From NCBI RefSeq assembly GCF_000730165.1, contig NZ_CP022110.1, forward strand, positions 248,001 through 312,000: 64,000 bases of DNA, written 5' to 3'. The translations under genes were made by a program, and so were the position numbers. The notes beneath the pieces are model-generated. The model saw nothing but the letters and a program-made list of their open reading frames with translations, was not told the origin of the DNA and did no database searches. Below, in pieces: positions 11,248-57,272 of this stretch; the stretch's first letter is position 1; the number at the start of each line of letters is the position of its first letter. Source of the stretch: Nitrospirillum viridazoti CBAmc (GTDB lineage Bacteria; Pseudomonadota; Alphaproteobacteria; Azospirillales; Azospirillaceae).

Positions 11248-11336
11248 GGCCGCGACCGCGGCCGCCGCAGCGAGCACCGCAGGGCGCAGCGAGGAAGCCA
11301 AGCGGCCGGATGGCCGCGCCCGGCGTTTGAGGGAAC

Positions 11337-11337
<1 letters not shown>
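11248..11337 (+). repeat. intergenic repeat copy 1b (direct orientation)
   Basis: Contains GGCCGCGACCGCGGCC, a degenerate middle part, GAGGAAGCCAAG, the hairpin CGGCC-GGAT-GGCCG, and GGCGTTTGAGGGAACC. It abuts the recQ stop codon and is convergent to copy 1a about 70 bp away. Confidence 0.85.
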
Positions 11338-13364
<2,027 letters not shown>

Positions 13365-25121: not shown

Positions 25122-25221
25122 GGATGCGACCGCATCTGCCGGAGCTTTCCGGGGAGCATAGCGGACTGGCAAGCGAGGAAGCCAAGCGGGCGGATGCCCG
25201 CGCCCGGCGGCTGAGGGAACC
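25122..25221 (+). repeat. intergenic repeat copy 3 (direct orientation)
   Basis: A complete copy: GGATGCGACCGCATC stem, GCTTTCCGGGGAGCATAGCG, GAGGAAGCCAAG, the variable hairpin CGGGC-GGAT-GCCCG, then CGGCTGAGGGAACC. The IS110 target core AGCCAAGC is intact and unoccupied. Lies between the OYE gene and leuC. Confidence 0.9.
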
Positions 25222-25290
25222 TTTACGTAAGCGAACGGCGCGGAACCCTGGGGCTCCGCGCCGTCGCTCACATTACGCCGATGCGTCCGC

Positions 25291-26700
25291 TCAGTTCAGC
25301 GTGCGCACGTCCGTCAGCTTGCCGGTCAATGCTGCGGCGGCGGCCATCTCGGGGCTCACCAGATGGGTGCGGCCGCCGGGGCCCTGGCGGCCCTCGAAGT
25401 TGCGGTTGGAGGTGCTGGCGCAGCGCTCACCCGGCTTCAGCTTGTCGTCGTTCATGGCCAGGCACATGGAGCAGCCGGGCTCCCGCCAGTCGAAGCCGGC
25501 GGCGACGAACACCTTGTCCAGGCCCTCGGACTCGGCCTGTTCCTTCACCAGGCCGGAGCCCGGGACCACCATGGCGTAGATGCCGTCCTTCACATGGCGG
25601 CCTTCCACCACCTTGGCGGCGGCGCGCAGGTCCTCGATACGGCTGTTGGTGCAGCTGCCGATGAAGACCTTGTCCACGGGGATGGCGTCCAGCGGGGTGC
25701 CGGCCTCCAGCCCCATGTACTTCAGCGCGCGTTCCATGGCGGCGCGGCGGTGCTCATCCGCCTCGTCGGCGGGGTTGGGCACGGTGGCGGTGATGGGTAG
25801 CACGTCCTGCGGGCTGGTGCCCCAGGTGACCATGGGGGCGATGTCCTCGGCCTTCAGCACGACCTCGCGGTCGTACACCGCACCCTCGTCCGAGGGCAGG
25901 CTCTTCCACCAGTTGACGGCCTGTTCCCAAGTCGCGGCCTTGGGCGCCTGCGGGCGGCCCTTCAGATACTCGAACGTGGTCTCGTCCGGGGCGATCAGGC
26001 CGGCGCGCGCACCCGCCTCGATGGCCATGTTGCAGACCGTCATGCGGCCTTCCATGCTGAGGCCGCGGATGACGGAGCCGGCGAACTCGATGACATGGCC
26101 GGTGCCGCCGGCGGTGCCGATCTTGCCGATGATGGCCAGCACCACGTCCTTGGCGGTCACGCCCACGGGCAGCTCGCCATCCACGCTGATGCGCATGTTC
26201 TTGGACGGCTTCAGCAGCAGGGTCTGCGTGGCCAGCACGTGTTCCACGTCCGACGTGCCGATGCCGAAGGCCAGGGCGCCGAACGCACCGTGGGTGGCGG
26301 TGTGGCTGTCGCCGCAGACGATGGTCATGCCCGGCTGGGTCAGTCCCTGCTCCGGCCCCACCACGTGGACGATGCCCTGGCGGATGTCGGACATGTCGTA
26401 GTAGTCGACGCCGAATTCCTTGGTGTTGATGGCCAGCTGCTCCACCTGGATGCGGCTTTCCTCGTTCTTGATGCCGGCCAGGCGGTCATGGCTGGTGGGA
26501 ACGTTGTGGTCGGCGACGGCCAGGGTGGCGGACGGGCGGCGCACCTTGCGGCCGGCCATGCGCAGACCTTCGAAGGCCTGCGGGCTGGTCACCTCATGCA
26601 CGAGGTGGAGATCGATGTAGAGCACGCAGGTGCCGTCTTCCTGGCGGTGGACGACGTGGCTGTCCCAGATCTTGTCATAGAGGGTGCGCGGCTTGCCCAT
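25291..26700 (-). CDS. leuC: 3-isopropylmalate dehydratase large subunit
   Basis: Isomerises 2-isopropylmalate to 3-isopropylmalate in leucine synthesis together with LeuD, which is not in this window. The 469-residue length is standard. Fe-S cysteines are seen in [16 protein letters not shown] and GCSMCLAMN. The start is [17 protein letters not shown] at 26700. The upstream stretch to 26771 is open but shows no leucine-rich leader peptide. A repeat lies downstream. Confidence 0.97.
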
Positions 26701-26886
26701 GGATCTTCACTCTGATGCGGACCGACGTTTCTGAAACGCCAAAACCCATGCGACGGGTCTTTTTGTTTCACGGAGGCGCAGAATAACGACCGGTCCTGTC
26801 GCGGACAAGGGGCGGCTCGCGCTGTGGCCGCATAGGGCCTATGTCCCGTCCCTTCCAGGGCCCCCCATTTTCAGAGCGAAGCGACT

Positions 26887-26952
26887 AGGACGCGACTGCG
26901 TCCTCCGGAGTTTTGCGGGTAGCGTAGCGGACCGGAAATTGAGGAAGCCAAG
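26887..26952 (+). repeat. intergenic repeat copy 4, left part, interrupted by IS110
   Basis: AGGACGCGACTGCGTCCT, a degenerate middle stem (GTTTTGCGGGTAGCGTAGCG) and GAGGAAGCCAAG end directly at the IS110 element. The right part resumes at 28089. Confidence 0.88.
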
Positions 26953-26961
26953 CAACAGTCT

Positions 26962-27897
26962 TTAAGGTGCGTATGCCCTCTGGTCTCGAATGAGTGCGTT
27001 GGCGAGGATAATGAGCTTACGCATGACAGCGACGAGGGCGGCTTTGGGCTTTTTGCCGGCGTTGATCAGCCTCCGATAGAAGTCTTTGAGGGTGTGGTTG
27101 TGCTTGCTGGCGACGAGGGCGGCCATATAGAGGACGGATCGGACCTCTGATCTTCCGCCGTAAATGCTCCTGGGCCTGTCGCGTTTGCCGCTCTGGTTAT
27201 CCATGGGAGCGACGCCGACCAATGCGGCGGCCTGGTGTCGTGTGATGGCGCCCAGTTCGGGCATGTAGGCCAACAGGACGGTTGAGCAGGCCGGACCGAC
27301 GCCGGGGATGGACTGGAGCCTGGCGTTGTTGGTCCTGAAGGTTTCATGCTGGGCGATGAGGTCAGCGATACGCTTTTCGATGCGGGCGATCTGAAGGGCC
27401 AGGATGTTCAGGTGGCGTTTGCTCAGACGGGCCAACTCCAGGTCCTCCAGAAGCTGAGCCTGGTTGCGGACCATGGTCTGCATGTTGGTGAGCTGACGCC
27501 GTCGCGTGGCCAGTTCCGCCAGTTTCTCCCGATGTGGGTCCGCCTGGTATGGCTCGCCTTCAATTGCCTGCGCGAAGGCGGTGATCATTCGGGCATCGAG
27601 GCGGTCATTCTTGGCCCAGCGCCCACTGGCTCGTGCGAAATGCCGAACCCGGCGGGGATCGACGATACGGACGGGAATATTGGCCTTCCATAAAGCCTTC
27701 ATGACAAGTCGCTCGTAGCCGCCGCTGGCCTCCACAACGACCTGTACAGCCCGCTTCCGGCACCGTTGCAGGAGGGTGGCATATCCGGCTTTGGTGTTAT
27801 CGATTTGAAAGGTCTCTCCCGTCGCGGCATCGAAGCCGTCCAGGCGGGCCTTGCTGACATCCAGGGCGATGATAGAGTCGTTCTGCGCCATCTTCAT
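26962..27897 (-). CDS. IS110-family transposase
   Basis: A DEDD recombinase of 311 residues, the usual size for the family. The N-terminal RuvC-like part has IALDVSKARLDGFD (first Asp), VVEASGGYE (Glu) and KNDRLDARMITAFAQ (Asp pair). The C-terminal Tnp_20 part has IPGVGPACSTVLLAYMPELG, then PMDNQSGKRDRPRSIYGG, where the family's reactive serine is expected, and VRSVLYMAALVASKHN. ATG 27897 (MKMAQNDS) has AAGGA about 8 bp upstream. The protein is identical to that of copy 2; the two nucleotide differences are synonymous. A guide RNA is expected to direct it. Confidence 0.95.
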   Translation of the reverse strand: MKMAQNDSIIALDVSKARLDGFDAATGETFQIDNTKAGYATLLQRCRKRAVQVVVEASGGYERLVMKALWKANIPVRIVDPRRVRHFARASGRWAKNDRLDARMITAFAQAIEGEPYQADPHREKLAELATRRRQLTNMQTMVRNQAQLLEDLELARLSKRHLNILALQIARIEKRIADLIAQHETFRTNNARLQSIPGVGPACSTVLLAYMPELGAITRHQAAALVGVAPMDNQSGKRDRPRSIYGGRSEVRSVLYMAALVASKHNHTLKDFYRRLINAGKKPKAALVAVMRKLIILANALIRDQRAYAP

Positions 27898-27904
27898 GCT
27901 CCCA

Positions 27905-28067
27905 TCCTTGCACGTACGGGGCGGCAACCCCAGGCAACTGTTCGGGTCAATGAAGGGGCCGTTCGGAGAGCCTTGCTTGGCTACGGAGCGCGAACTACCG
28001 AAAAGCGGAGCGGTCTTCCGGACGGGTCACGAGCTGGGGCATGCCCCAGCTCGTGACAGCGCATTTT
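27905..28067 (-). ncRNA. putative IS110 bridge RNA, copy 1
   Basis: The non-coding region upstream of the transposase, where IS110-group elements encode their bridge RNA. Minus-strand order: CATAAT (-10-like, 28079-28074); a 32-nt perfect palindrome as a 5' stem-loop (28057-28026); a second stem-loop closed by CCGTCCGGAAGA / TCTCCGAACGG (28025-28014 with 27969-27959); then a third possible stem-loop (27960-27915). The second loop holds AGCCAAGC (27982-27975), the same as the target's conserved core. RNA ends are estimated from the -10-like sequence. By eye only; no folding was run. Confidence 0.55.
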
Positions 28068-28088
28068 ACGCAGATTATGGAAGACACA

Positions 28089-28124
28089 AGCCCGCGGACG
28101 CGGGCGCCCGGCATTTGAGGGAGC
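28089..28124 (+). repeat. intergenic repeat copy 4, right part
   Basis: Begins with the AG core, then the variable hairpin CCCGC-GGAC-GCGGG and GGCATTTGAGGGAGC. Joining it to 26952 restores a normal repeat. Its GAGGGAGC lies 6-13 bp before the next start codon and may act as that gene's ribosome site. Confidence 0.88.
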
Positions 28125-28129
28125 AAAAC

Positions 28130-29848
28130 ATGATCGAGCCGGATGAGGTTCCCCCCACCGCCCGGGGCACCAACCTGTACATCGCCGACATCAACCTGCA
28201 GCGCCTGCTGGAACGGCGCGCGCCGGAGGAATTGCGGCGGCATGAGGATCGGTTGGCCGATTTCGGCGCCTGGGCCGGGGGGCCGCTGGATGAGCAGGCG
28301 GAATACACCGACCGCCACGCCAATCCACAGTACGTGCCCCAACCTTATGGCCCCAATGGTCCTCAACCCGGCCACATCGTCTTCAACCCCCGCTATGTGG
28401 AATGCCACGCCGAGGCCTATGCCCGGGGTGCTGTCGGCCTGCCCTATCAGAAGGGTGCATCGGGCCGGCACCTGGCCTGCTTCACCATGGGCTATCTGCT
28501 GAGCCAGGCGGACGTGTCCATCCATTGCCCTGTCACCATGACGGGGGCGGTGGCCCACGTGCTGCACACCGTGGCGCCCAAGGAAGTACGCGAGCGCTTC
28601 CTGCCCCAGCTGACGCGCATGGACGGCCAGGCCCTGTCTGGCGGCACCTGGGCGACGGAGCTGCACGGCGGGTCTGACGTGGGCACCACCACCACGCGGG
28701 CGGTGAAGACAGATCAGGCCTGGGCCCTGCACGGCCTGAAATGGTTCACCAGCAACGCGGGATCCGGCCTGGCCCTGGCCACCGCCCGGCCGGACGGTGC
28801 GCCTACGGGCGGCAAGGGGCTGGGCTGCTACCTGGTGCCCAGCCATCTGGAAGGTGGCGAGCCCAACGCGTACAGCGTCCGCCGCCTAAAGGAGAAGGTG
28901 GGCACGCGCGGCCTGGCCACGGCGGAACTGGACCTCAATGGCGCCACCGCTTTCGAGGTGGCGGGACCGGGCGAGGGGCTGAAGGTCATGATGGCCGCCC
29001 TGGAGTACAGCCGCATCCACAACGCCGTCGCCTCCGCCGGCCTGCTGCGCCGCGCCTTCGTCGAATCGCTGGGATGGTCGGCGCACCGCGCCGCCTTCGG
29101 CCAGACCGTGATCCATTACCCCATGGTGCAGGACCAGCTGCTGGACATGCAGATGGAATTGGAGGCGGCGGTGGCGCTGTCCTTCGAGTCGGTGTTCGCC
29201 TTCGACGCCCTGGCGACGGGGGCCCTGGCGACGGGGGACAGCGATCCGGAGCAGGGAGGCGATTGGCTGCGCCTGGTGACAGCGCTGGCCAAGTACCGCA
29301 CCGCCGACCAGGCGGTGAAGGCCTGCCGCACGGCTGTCGAGATGGTGGGCGGCAACGGCTACACCGAGGAATTCCCCACTGCCCGGCTGTACCGCGATTG
29401 CCTGGTGACCGCCGTGTGGGAGGGGCCGGCCAACATCCAGGCGCTGGAGCTGCTGCGCCTGGTGGCGGGCAAGCGGCCCGGCGACCAGATCTTCCTCGGC
29501 CGCGTGGGGGCCGCCCTGTCCGATCTGCCCCCACAGGCGGGCGATACCGCCGACCTGCTGGAAGGCGCCCTGGAGGAATGCCGGGCCGCCCTGTCCCACC
29601 TGCGCCGCAACCCGGACCAGGCGCCCCGCCACGGCCGGCGCCTGCTGGACCTGTTGTCCGACACCCTGGCGACGGCCCTGCTGTGCGAGGAGGCGGTGGC
29701 CGACCTGAAGCTGGGTGACAGCCGCAAGATGCTGGTGGCCAACCGCTTCGCCGCCCGCGTTCTGGCCCACCACAACCCCATCGCCACGGAGATGGAGCCG
29801 GCCCTGGCGGCGTTCGAGGACGTAATCCTGTATCAGCCGGTGGGGTGA
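28130..29848 (+). CDS. AidB-like acyl-CoA dehydrogenase
   Basis: A flavoprotein of about 572 residues. It is longer than ordinary acyl-CoA dehydrogenases (~380) and is organised like AidB: an N-terminal extension, SIHCPVTMTGAVAHVL, the substrate segment WATELHGGSDVGTTTT, LHGLKWFTSNAGS, the linker RRLKEKVGTRGLATAEL, and the C-terminal VEMVGGNGYTEEFPTARLYRD followed by VWEGPANIQALELLRL. E. coli AidB is linked to alkylation response, but many homologues are simply acyl-CoA dehydrogenases. ATG 28130 was chosen (MIEPDEVPPTARG). IS110 sits 41 bp upstream, so its native promoter may be separated from the gene. Confidence 0.88.
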   Translation: MIEPDEVPPTARGTNLYIADINLQRLLERRAPEELRRHEDRLADFGAWAGGPLDEQAEYTDRHANPQYVPQPYGPNGPQPGHIVFNPRYVECHAEAYARGAVGLPYQKGASGRHLACFTMGYLLSQADVSIHCPVTMTGAVAHVLHTVAPKEVRERFLPQLTRMDGQALSGGTWATELHGGSDVGTTTTRAVKTDQAWALHGLKWFTSNAGSGLALATARPDGAPTGGKGLGCYLVPSHLEGGEPNAYSVRRLKEKVGTRGLATAELDLNGATAFEVAGPGEGLKVMMAALEYSRIHNAVASAGLLRRAFVESLGWSAHRAAFGQTVIHYPMVQDQLLDMQMELEAAVALSFESVFAFDALATGALATGDSDPEQGGDWLRLVTALAKYRTADQAVKACRTAVEMVGGNGYTEEFPTARLYRDCLVTAVWEGPANIQALELLRLVAGKRPGDQIFLGRVGAALSDLPPQAGDTADLLEGALEECRAALSHLRRNPDQAPRHGRRLLDLLSDTLATALLCEEAVADLKLGDSRKMLVANRFAARVLAHHNPIATEMEPALAAFEDVILYQPVG

Positions 29849-42440: not shown

Positions 42441-42515
42441 GCGGGCGTAGCTCAGGGGTAGAGCACAACCTTGCCAAGGTTGGGGTCGAGGGTTCGAATC
42501 CCTTCGCCCGCTCCA
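42441..42515 (+). tRNA. tRNA-Gly (anticodon GCC), copy 1
   Basis: Acceptor GCGGGCG pairs with CGCCCGC, then TCCA encoded. The D-arm is GCTC..GAGC, anticodon stem CAACC/GGTTG with loop TTGCCAA gives GCC, and the T-arm contains GGTTCGAATCC. 75 nt, complete. Confidence 0.97.
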
Positions 42516-42542
42516 GTCTTCCTCAGGGAAGAGCAAGCGAGA

Positions 42543-42578
42543 AAAGGCCGGGCCGGCTGGTTCGGCCTTTCGCTTTTA
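42543..42578 (+). terminator. hairpin between the two tRNA-Gly genes
   Basis: AAAGGCCG and CGGCCTTT form an 8-bp stem followed by CGCTTTT. It may act as a terminator or processing site between the tRNAs. Confidence 0.6.
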
Positions 42579-42614
42579 GGTGAGCCTTCCCTGTGAAGGC
42601 GGAGAGTTGGGTAT

Positions 42615-42689
42615 GCGGGCGTAGCTCAGGGGTAGAGCACAACCTTGCCAAGGTTGGGGTCGAGGGTTCGAATCCCTTCGCCCGCTCCA
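42615..42689 (+). tRNA. tRNA-Gly (anticodon GCC), copy 2
   Basis: Identical in sequence to copy 1, including the encoded CCA and the first few bases after it. Spacing of 99 bp between genes; a tandem duplication. Confidence 0.97.
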
Positions 42690-56040: not shown

Positions 56041-56104
56041 AGCCCGACTGCGGGCGCCGGACCTTTCCGGGGAGCGGAGCGGACTGGAAAGGGAGGAAGC
56101 CAAG
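56041..56104 (+). repeat. intergenic repeat copy 11, left part, interrupted by IS110
   Basis: Contains CCCGACTGCGGG, CCTTTCCGGGGAGCGGAGCG, and GAGGAAGCCAAG ending at the IS110 element. The right part resumes at 57241. Confidence 0.88.
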
Positions 56105-56113
56105 CAACAGTCT

Positions 56114-57049
56114 TTAAGGTGCGTATGCCCTCTGGTCTCGAATGAGTGCGTTGGCGAGGATAATGAGCTTACGCATGACAGCGACGAGGGCGGCTTTGGG
56201 CTTTTTGCCGGCGTTGATCAGCCTCCGATAGAAGTCTTTGAGGGTGTGGTTGTGCTTGCTGGCGACGAGGGCGGCCATATAGAGGACGGATCGGACCTCT
56301 GATCTTCCGCCGTAAATGCTCCTGGGCCTGTCGCGTTTGCCGCTCTGGTTATCCATGGGAGCGACGCCGACCAATGCGGCGGCCTGGTGTCGTGTGATGG
56401 CGCCCAGTTCGGGCATGTAGGCCAACAGGACGGTTGAGCAGGCCGGACCGACGCCGGGGATGGACTGGAGCCTGGCGTTGTTGGTCCTGAAGGTTTCATG
56501 CTGGGCGATGAGGTCAGCGATACGCTTTTCGATGCGGGCGATCTGAAGGGCCAGGATGTTCAGGTGGCGTTTGCTCAGACGGGCCAACTCCAGGTCCTCC
56601 AGAAGCTGAGCCTGGTTGCGGACCATGGTCTGCATGTTGGTGAGCTGACGCCGTCGCGTGGCCAGTTCCGCCAGTTTCTCCCGATGTGGGTCTGCCTGGT
56701 ATGGCTCCCCTTCAATTGCCTGCGCGAAGGCGGTGATCATTCGGGCATCGAGGCGGTCATTCTTGGCCCAGCGCCCACTGGCTCGTGCGAAATGCCGAAC
56801 CCGGCGGGGATCGACGATACGGACGGGAATATTGGCCTTCCATAAAGCCTTCATGACAAGTCGCTCGTAGCCGCCGCTGGCCTCCACAACGACCTGTACA
56901 GCCCGCTTCCGGCACCGTTGCAGGAGGGTGGCATATCCGGCTTTGGTGTTATCGATTTGAAAGGTCTCTCCCGTCGCGGCATCGAAGCCGTCCAGGCGGG
57001 CCTTGCTGACATCCAGGGCGATGATAGAGTCGTTCTGCGCCATCTTCAT
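56114..57049 (-). CDS. IS110-family transposase, copy 2
   Basis: Protein sequence identical to the transposase at 26962-27897 (311 residues), so it should be functional. Same DEDD and Tnp_20 motifs and the same AAGGA before ATG 57049. The two copies together suggest recent movement or gene conversion. Confidence 0.95.
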   Translation of the reverse strand: MKMAQNDSIIALDVSKARLDGFDAATGETFQIDNTKAGYATLLQRCRKRAVQVVVEASGGYERLVMKALWKANIPVRIVDPRRVRHFARASGRWAKNDRLDARMITAFAQAIEGEPYQADPHREKLAELATRRRQLTNMQTMVRNQAQLLEDLELARLSKRHLNILALQIARIEKRIADLIAQHETFRTNNARLQSIPGVGPACSTVLLAYMPELGAITRHQAAALVGVAPMDNQSGKRDRPRSIYGGRSEVRSVLYMAALVASKHNHTLKDFYRRLINAGKKPKAALVAVMRKLIILANALIRDQRAYAP

Positions 57050-57056
57050 GCTCCCA

Positions 57057-57219
57057 TCCTTGCACGTACGGGGCGGCAACCCCCGGCAACTGTTCGGGTC
57101 AATGAAGGGGCCGTTCGGAGAGCCTTGCTTGGCTACGGAGCGCGAACTACCGAAAAGCGGAGCGGTCTTCCGGACGGGTCACGAGCTGGGGCATGCCCCA
57201 GCTCGTGACAGCGCATTTT
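57057..57219 (-). ncRNA. putative IS110 bridge RNA, copy 2
   Basis: Same layout as copy 1, with candidate target guide AGCCAAGC at 57127-57134. It differs from copy 1 by one base (57084), which falls in the third possible stem-loop, the expected donor-binding part. RNA ends are estimated. Confidence 0.55.
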
Positions 57220-57240
57220 ACGCAGATTATGGAAGACACA

Positions 57241-57272
57241 AGGCGCGGATGCGCCGCCGGCGCCTGAGGCAA
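57241..57272 (+). repeat. intergenic repeat copy 11, right part
   Basis: AG core, variable hairpin GCGC-GGAT-GCGC, and GGCGCCTGAGGC. Confidence 0.88.

What the first reader, a model, noticed from the sequence alone, without database searches (positions are those of the whole stretch)
26887..28124. Two IS110 elements inserted at the same base of a dispersed intergenic repeat
Seen directly: both elements (26953-28088 and 56105-57240) interrupt different copies of the same ~100-bp repeat, each directly after GAGGAAGCCAAG, in the same orientation, with the rest of the repeat resuming on the other side. Removing either element restores a repeat like the intact copies at 11.3 and 25.2 kb. Both ends carry AG on the plus strand (CT on the minus), compatible with a CT core dinucleotide. 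Known: some IS110/IS1111 members target REP-like sequences, and IS621 uses a bridge RNA with a CT core. Inferred: this element uses the host's intergenic repeat as a safe, renewable landing site.
Basis: partly seen in the sequence, partly recalled or inferred. Interest (0 to 1): 0.88.

Follow-up and report, generated by a model that had tools for sequence, protein, structure and literature searches.

The report
Repeat-targeting IS110 elements at inversion breakpoints
A small jumping gene of a known RNA-guided kind has landed at the same base of a scattered repeat in every copy we found here and in a sister species, and in this genome its three copies appear to sit where the chromosome was rearranged.

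Summary
Two near-identical 1,138-bp IS110 elements interrupt copies of a host hairpin repeat after GCCAAG. The genome has a third copy, also at this base (3 of 3). Sister species G005 has a different element (66% aa) at the same base (4 of 4). The leader upstream of the transposase has bridge-RNA anatomy: its right target guide pairs with CTTGGCT at all seven sites, and across 20 related elements this guide covaries with the target (91 of 100 points; best of 100,000 permutations 72.5). Its left guide fits poorly.

One correction: in six of six sister genomes the genes flanking the three copies are paired differently, and one or two of these genomes keep an intact repeat at each ancestral junction. 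Halves now beside different IS copies meet exactly at CAAG. So each copy lies between halves of two ancestral repeats. Best explanation: three targeted insertions, then two inversions by recombination between copies; an assembly error at the copies is not excluded. REP-targeting IS110 elements and bridge RNAs are published: a new member of a known kind. 'Safe, renewable site' was not tested.

The parts
26953..28090 (-). IS110 element, copy 1 (1,138 bp with one CT core)
56105..57242 (-). IS110 element, copy 2 (1,138 bp with one CT core)
26962..27897 (-). transposase/recombinase, copy 1: 311 aa; Pfam DEDD_Tnp_IS110 and Transposase_20
56114..57049 (-). transposase/recombinase, copy 2
27898..28090 (-). 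non-coding leader upstream of the transposase, putative bridge RNA region
28026..28057 (-). perfect 32-nt palindrome, putative 5' stem-loop of the bridge RNA
28001..28010 (-). position where relatives carry the left target guide; here a weak match to the sites
27976..27983 (-). putative right target guide UAGCCAAG, pairs with CTTGGCT of the repeat
27934..27942 (-). putative left donor guide AACAGUUGC, resembles the element's right end
27907..27916 (-). putative right donor guide UACGUGCAAG
   Evidence: assigned by analogy to IS621
26888..26952 (.). left half of repeat at copy 1 (leuC side); ancestral partner now at copy 2 right
28087..28124 (.). right half of repeat at copy 1 (acyl-CoA dehydrogenase side); ancestral partner now at copy 3
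56041..56104 (.). left half of repeat at copy 2 (GST-like gene side); ancestral partner now at copy 3
57239..57268 (.). right half of repeat at copy 2 (DUF4167-like gene side); ancestral partner now at copy 1 left
11288..11338 (+). intact repeat core (uninterrupted site)
25172..25222 (+). intact repeat core (uninterrupted site)

Best explanation
This is an IS110-type insertion sequence. Its leader RNA acts as a bridge RNA and directs the recombinase to a CT core inside a hairpin repeat of the genus, mainly through a right target guide complementary to CTTGGCT (inferred from sequence and covariation, not from an experiment). Three copies inserted into three different repeats. Homologous recombination between inversely oriented copies then produced two inversions, which turned gene order A-B-C-D into A-C-(-B)-D and shuffled the repeat halves among the copies (breakpoints shown in the assembly; the recombination route is inferred).
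For: Family: both Pfam domains above cut-off; D13, E56, D98 and D101 invariant in five homologues and in three. Target: 3 of 3 copies here and 4 of 4 in G005 at the same base. Guide: 7 of 7 pairing at all seven sites; in 20 blind-anchored elements of 27 the right guide scores 91 of 100 against a permutation mean of 49.4 and maximum of 72.5 in 100,000, and the left guide region 99.5 of 120 against mean 84.8 and maximum 98.5 in 20,000. Empty sites: intact repeats at leuC|DUF4167 and MarC|ACAD in G002, at MarC|ACAD and glucosidase|GST in G004, and at the G003 counterpart of one G005 insertion. Rearrangement: each of the three ancestral gene pairs lies together, 130 to 1,159 bp apart, in 6 of 6 sister genomes. 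The four sister intergenic sequences with intact repeats each match flanks of two different IS copies, and the two best matches overlap by 4 bp at CAAG/CTTG. The orientations of the sites (worked out by hand) are those that two inversions between inverted copies would need.
Against: This element's left target guide is weak (3.5 of 6) and does not rank the occupied sites above intact ones. The fold of the target loop alone is no better than shuffles (z -0.51). Expression and transposition are not shown. An intact repeat is absent at many of the sister junctions: glucosidase|GST has it in 1 of 6, MarC|ACAD in 2 of 6 (a third, G005, has a repeat in the opposite orientation), leuC|DUF4167 in 1 of 6 (G001 and G005 show partial or degenerate ones) (by eye). 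S236 is invariant in three homologues but not listed as invariant in five. The inversions rest on one assembly whose breakpoints lie in near-identical 1.1-kb copies.
Confidence: 0.8

Rival explanations
1. The gene-order change is an assembly error: the strain has the ancestral order with an IS in each of the three repeats, and contigs were mis-joined at the near-identical copies.
For: All three breakpoints coincide with 1.1-kb copies that differ at only 5 positions.
Against: G000 is in 4 contigs for 7.38 Mb, which suggests a finished assembly, and 1.1 kb is short for long reads. Wider gene order also differs in G005 and G006 (positions), so the region does rearrange.
Confidence: 0.13
2. The host repeats recombined first and the IS inserted later into the already shuffled repeats.
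For: The repeats are numerous (58 by the wider pattern) and could recombine.
Against: The three insertions would have had to hit just the three rearranged repeats among about 60.
Confidence: 0.05
3. The GCCAAG and stem sequences are part of the IS ends rather than a target.
For: They flank every copy.
Against: 31 to 58 copies lack the IS, orthologous empty sites exist, and the left-side stem differs between copies.
Confidence: 0.01

Closest known systems
IS621 (IS110 family, E. coli)
   Same: DEDD recombinase with Transposase_20 domain, leader RNA upstream of the gene with target and donor guides, CT core, insertion in REP elements (PMC11208160, passages read).
   Different: Different host and repeat; a right target guide that pairs over 7 nt where the short IS621 form pairs over 4 (7 in its extended form); a weak left guide; a 32-nt perfect palindrome near the left end.
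ISEc21 and the IS1111 member ISPa11 (seekRNA systems)
   Same: NCR-derived guide RNA; ISEc21 has its NCR upstream of tnp as here; ISPa11 targets REP sequences (PMC11187229, passages read).
   Different: ISPa11 is IS1111-type with its NCR downstream; different targets.
ISPpu9, ISPpu10, ISRm19, ISRm22 and others with 'type 1' REP association
   Same: All copies at one position of a host REP; hybrid flanks through recombination between copies were already suggested for three ISRm22 copies (PMC1525189, abstract and Results read).
   Different: Other hosts and repeats. The relationship of these elements to the present one was not tested.

Membership tests
IS110 family (IS110 group) | transposase with N-terminal DEDD RuvC-like and C-terminal Transposase_20 domains | tested here: met
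   PF01548 66.7 bits (cut-off 29) and PF02371 68.4 bits (cut-off 21.3)
IS110 family (IS110 group) | conserved D-E-D-D and serine positions | tested here: met
   D13, E56, D98, D101 invariant in 5 of 5 proteins; S236 present and invariant in 3 of 3 but not listed as invariant in the 5. Their catalytic role is recalled
IS110 family (IS110 group) | long non-coding region upstream of tnp | tested here: met
   193 nt upstream against 9 nt downstream
bridge RNA / seekRNA system | guide segments complementary to target, covarying between elements | tested here: met
   right guide met for the clade and for this element; left guide met for the clade (20 of 27 elements anchored)
bridge RNA / seekRNA system | left target guide complementary to this element's own sites | tested here: inconclusive
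   3.5 of 6; does not rank occupied sites
bridge RNA / seekRNA system | donor guides matching the element ends | tested here: inconclusive
   left: ACAGUUGC matches copy 3 and the G005 right end, copies 1 and 2 carry one mismatch; right donor guide assigned by analogy only
bridge RNA / seekRNA system | RNA expressed, bound by the recombinase and required for transposition | not testable with these tools
   needs experiment
Rfam RNA family | match to a curated family | tested here: not met
   only mir-8521 at 18.9 bits, far below its cut-off of 80 (window 26700-28300)
REP sequences | short palindromic, intergenic, many copies | tested here: met
   palindromic stems with covarying arms, 58 matches by pattern; intergenic position checked only at the loci studied
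REP sequences | association with a REP-specific transposase (RAYT) | not tested
   no search made

The most novel reading that the evidence does not exclude
The bridge-RNA recombinase itself, not host homologous recombination, exchanged strands between occupied repeats and so moved and inverted chromosome segments of about 28 and 114 kb; a repeat-targeting IS110 would then be a natural rearranger of its host chromosome.
Probability: 0.06. Interest if true: 0.7.

Novelty: new member of a known kind. Interest (0 to 1): 0.42.

Why it matters
It gives a natural case in which guide, target repeat, empty sites and rearrangement breakpoints can all be read from sequence. It also shows that the flanks of a repeat-targeting IS should not be assumed to be one original site. 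The clade offers many natural guide/target pairs, several with hairpin-like targets.

Tried and rejected
Left guide as the cause of site choice: occupied sites fall in one stem class in each species (CGCGGA 3 of 3 against 6 of the 50 intact sites listed, of 58, in G000; CCGGA 4 of 4 against 20 of 60 in G005; chance 0.0036 and 0.017), but the classes were chosen after seeing the sites, and guide complementarity did not rank them. An apical-loop segment (UUCGCG here, UUCCGG in G005) resembles the preferred stems, but would need 1-3 unpaired target bases and can also be explained by a paired hairpin (inspection); left open.

Single-protein scans of genome contigs and viral contigs found no relative. 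Megablast of the element against plasmids found nothing. The first pattern search used a wrong spacing and found 0. Rfam gave nothing useful. Naming the organism failed; plasmid hits, 10 of 34 records from Azospirillum and the best from Indioceanicola, only suggest that family. A paper search for Nitrospirillum with insertion sequence, made on a guess, held 0 papers.

In one search minus-strand loci were aligned without being reversed, and the joined own site carried two extra bases; that alignment is not used. replace it.

Of 84 relatives fetched (4 plasmid loci, 80 contig loci) I inspected 46 for element ends; 38 were not inspected. Of the 46, 33 were carried on; the other 13 lacked a recognisable end or ran off the contig. 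In one search the right guide was placed by its match to the target, so its scores are not independent evidence. One search used 27 non-redundant elements including the two genus elements; 20 had a blind guide anchor. The 7 dropped had scores of 6 to 8 of 8; one kept element (L079) was mis-anchored and scored 1 of 5.

Full report
Observation. The two elements were read directly. Each interrupts a repeat after GAGGAAGCCAAG. CAAG (CTTG on the element strand) is present at both ends, so the exact cut cannot be placed from these copies alone. In the Sinorhizobium relative L073 the right flank is CTCATT and the left element end CTTGTG, leaving only CT shared; by that comparison the core is CT. The elements are 1,138 bp with one core. 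The transposase (311 aa) carries both IS110 Pfam domains.

All copies. The genome (7.38 Mb, 4 contigs; the window is C1:248001-312000) holds three near-full copies, all on C1. They differ at 5 positions. Sister species G005 holds a 66%-identical protein in four places, one of them frameshifted by one inserted base. All seven insertions split CTTGGC at the same base. Of 82 genomes of the family searched, only the own genome and G005 had a protein match at E 1e-75. In a looser search of 59 relatives one more, G026, had a 40%-identical protein, with a different right flank.

Target. The repeat is about 105-115 bp with several stems: CCCTCAGGCGCCGGGCGC, a variable stem around ATCC, CTTGGCTTCCTCG, and two more stems (30 copies read; length judged by eye). 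The strict pattern finds 31 copies here and 60 in G005; the wider pattern finds 58 and 139. Reversed controls find none.

Guide. Across relatives the leader reads, in order: the left element end, in some a long palindrome (stem of 12 bp or more in the first 100 nt of 10 of 26 leaders), a left target guide usually ending in CU, a hairpin ending in CCG or TCG, a right target guide ending in AG, and a donor guide such as AACAGUUGC. The right target guide of this element, UAGCCAAG, pairs with CTTGGCT in all seven sites, and with an eighth base in one (a wobble in another). The permutation test used 20 of 27 non-redundant elements, those in which the guide could be placed without looking at the target: 91 of 100 points observed; mean 49.4 and maximum 72.5 in 100,000 permutations. 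The left guide test gave 99.5 of 120 against mean 84.8 and maximum 98.5 in 20,000. Some elements are close relatives, so permutations overstate independence. This element's own left guide scores only 3.5 of 6 and does not explain which repeats are occupied. The whole leader folds better than shuffles (z -3.18), to which the long palindrome must contribute; the target loop alone does not (z -0.51).

Some other members of the clade also sit in repeats or palindromes. In Mesorhizobium sp. AR07, 9 of 9 loci fetched share the target GC(C/T)(G/A)CCC|CTCA(C/T)CTG. The Sinorhizobium insertion L073 has similar repeat sequence on both sides. These were seen by inspection only.

Rearrangement. In 6 of 6 sister genomes a glucosidase-like gene is next to a GST-like gene, a MarC-like gene next to an acyl-CoA dehydrogenase gene, and leuC next to a DUF4167-like gene, 130 to 1,159 bp apart (gene names other than leuC are by inspection and recall, and the longer gaps between MarC and the dehydrogenase may hold a small gene). 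In G000 none of these pairs is adjacent: the copies now lie between glucosidase and MarC (copy 3), leuC and acyl-CoA dehydrogenase (copy 1), and GST and DUF4167 (copy 2). Intact repeats stand at leuC|DUF4167 and MarC|dehydrogenase in G002, and at MarC|dehydrogenase and glucosidase|GST in G004; the remaining junctions lack the repeat or hold a partial one, and G005 has one in the opposite orientation at MarC|dehydrogenase (by eye). Blastn of the four intact sister sequences gives, as the two best matches of each, flanks of two different IS copies: 1-316 and 313-444 (G002 leuC|DUF4167, copy 1 left and copy 2 right); 1-200 and 197-308 (G002) and 1-237 and 234-346 (G004) (MarC|dehydrogenase, copy 3 right and copy 1 right); 2-151 and 148-437 (G004 glucosidase|GST, copy 3 left and copy 2 left). 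Each overlap is the 4 bp CAAG/CTTG. Shorter and weaker matches to the other copies, as expected of a repeat, were also listed. Positions place G002, G003 and G004 in the order A-B-C-D; G005 and G006 keep the pairs but differ in wider order, and G001 is too fragmented to tell. Writing the site orientation as arrows, A>B>C<D becomes A>C<(-B)<D through two inversions between oppositely oriented copies, which is the order and orientation in G000 (worked out by hand). Homologous recombination leaves one full IS at each junction, as seen. A recombinase-made exchange between the ends of different copies would be expected to leave an empty repeat and a tandem IS, which is not seen (inference).

Empty site in the sister species. 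For one of the four G005 insertions (L035) I looked for its flanks in the six other genomes. They are neighbours in G000, G002, G003 and G004, and not in G001 (about 11 kb apart) or G006 (different contigs). G003 has an intact repeat at the place of the IS; the stretches printed for G000, G002 and G004 show none. The other three G005 insertions were not tested in this way.

Known context. REP elements as exact targets of several insertion sequences were shown in 2006 (PMC1525189, abstract and Results read), including hybrid flanks in ISRm22 for which recombination between copies was suggested. Bridge and seek RNAs were shown in 2024 (PMC11208160 and PMC11187229, passages read); the first also reports rare genomic deletions and inversions between insertion sites. 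Searches for papers. I found no paper on this element or this repeat in those listings, which cover only an open-licence library; no search was made with its sequence or name.

Verdict. The finding is real and of a published kind. The added points are the guide match with covariation and the evidence that each copy in this genome lies between halves of two ancestral repeats.

Noticed in passing
copies 1 and 2, right element end (window 26957 and 56109): Copies 1 and 2 carry ACTGTTG (element strand) where copy 3, the G005 element and the donor guide have ACAGTTG, a one-base donor mismatch that might lower their mobility.
   Followed up: partly
window 28026-28057 and copy 2 equivalent: Perfect 32-nt palindrome near the left end; 10 of 26 leaders examined, this one included, have a stem of 12 bp or more there, mostly with different sequence.
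   Followed up: partly
occupied repeats in G000 and G005: Occupied repeats fall in one stem class per species (CGCGGA, CCGGA) and no guide explains it; the classes were defined after the fact.
   Followed up: partly
L038-L040 (G005 C3:1946 kb): Fourth G005 copy is frameshifted by one inserted base.
   Followed up: yes
window 42441-42689: Two identical tRNA-Gly (GCC) genes in tandem, starts 174 bp apart.
   Followed up: no
G002:C4:249665-250122: Several matches to the repeat lie close together, as if clustered.
   Followed up: no
L100, L108, L118, L123, L134: Related elements in Microvirga, Methylorubrum, Methylobacterium and Beijerinckia share a palindrome-like target, CGACGGA..GC|CTCCGTCG in the clearest cases (L108, L123).
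   Followed up: no
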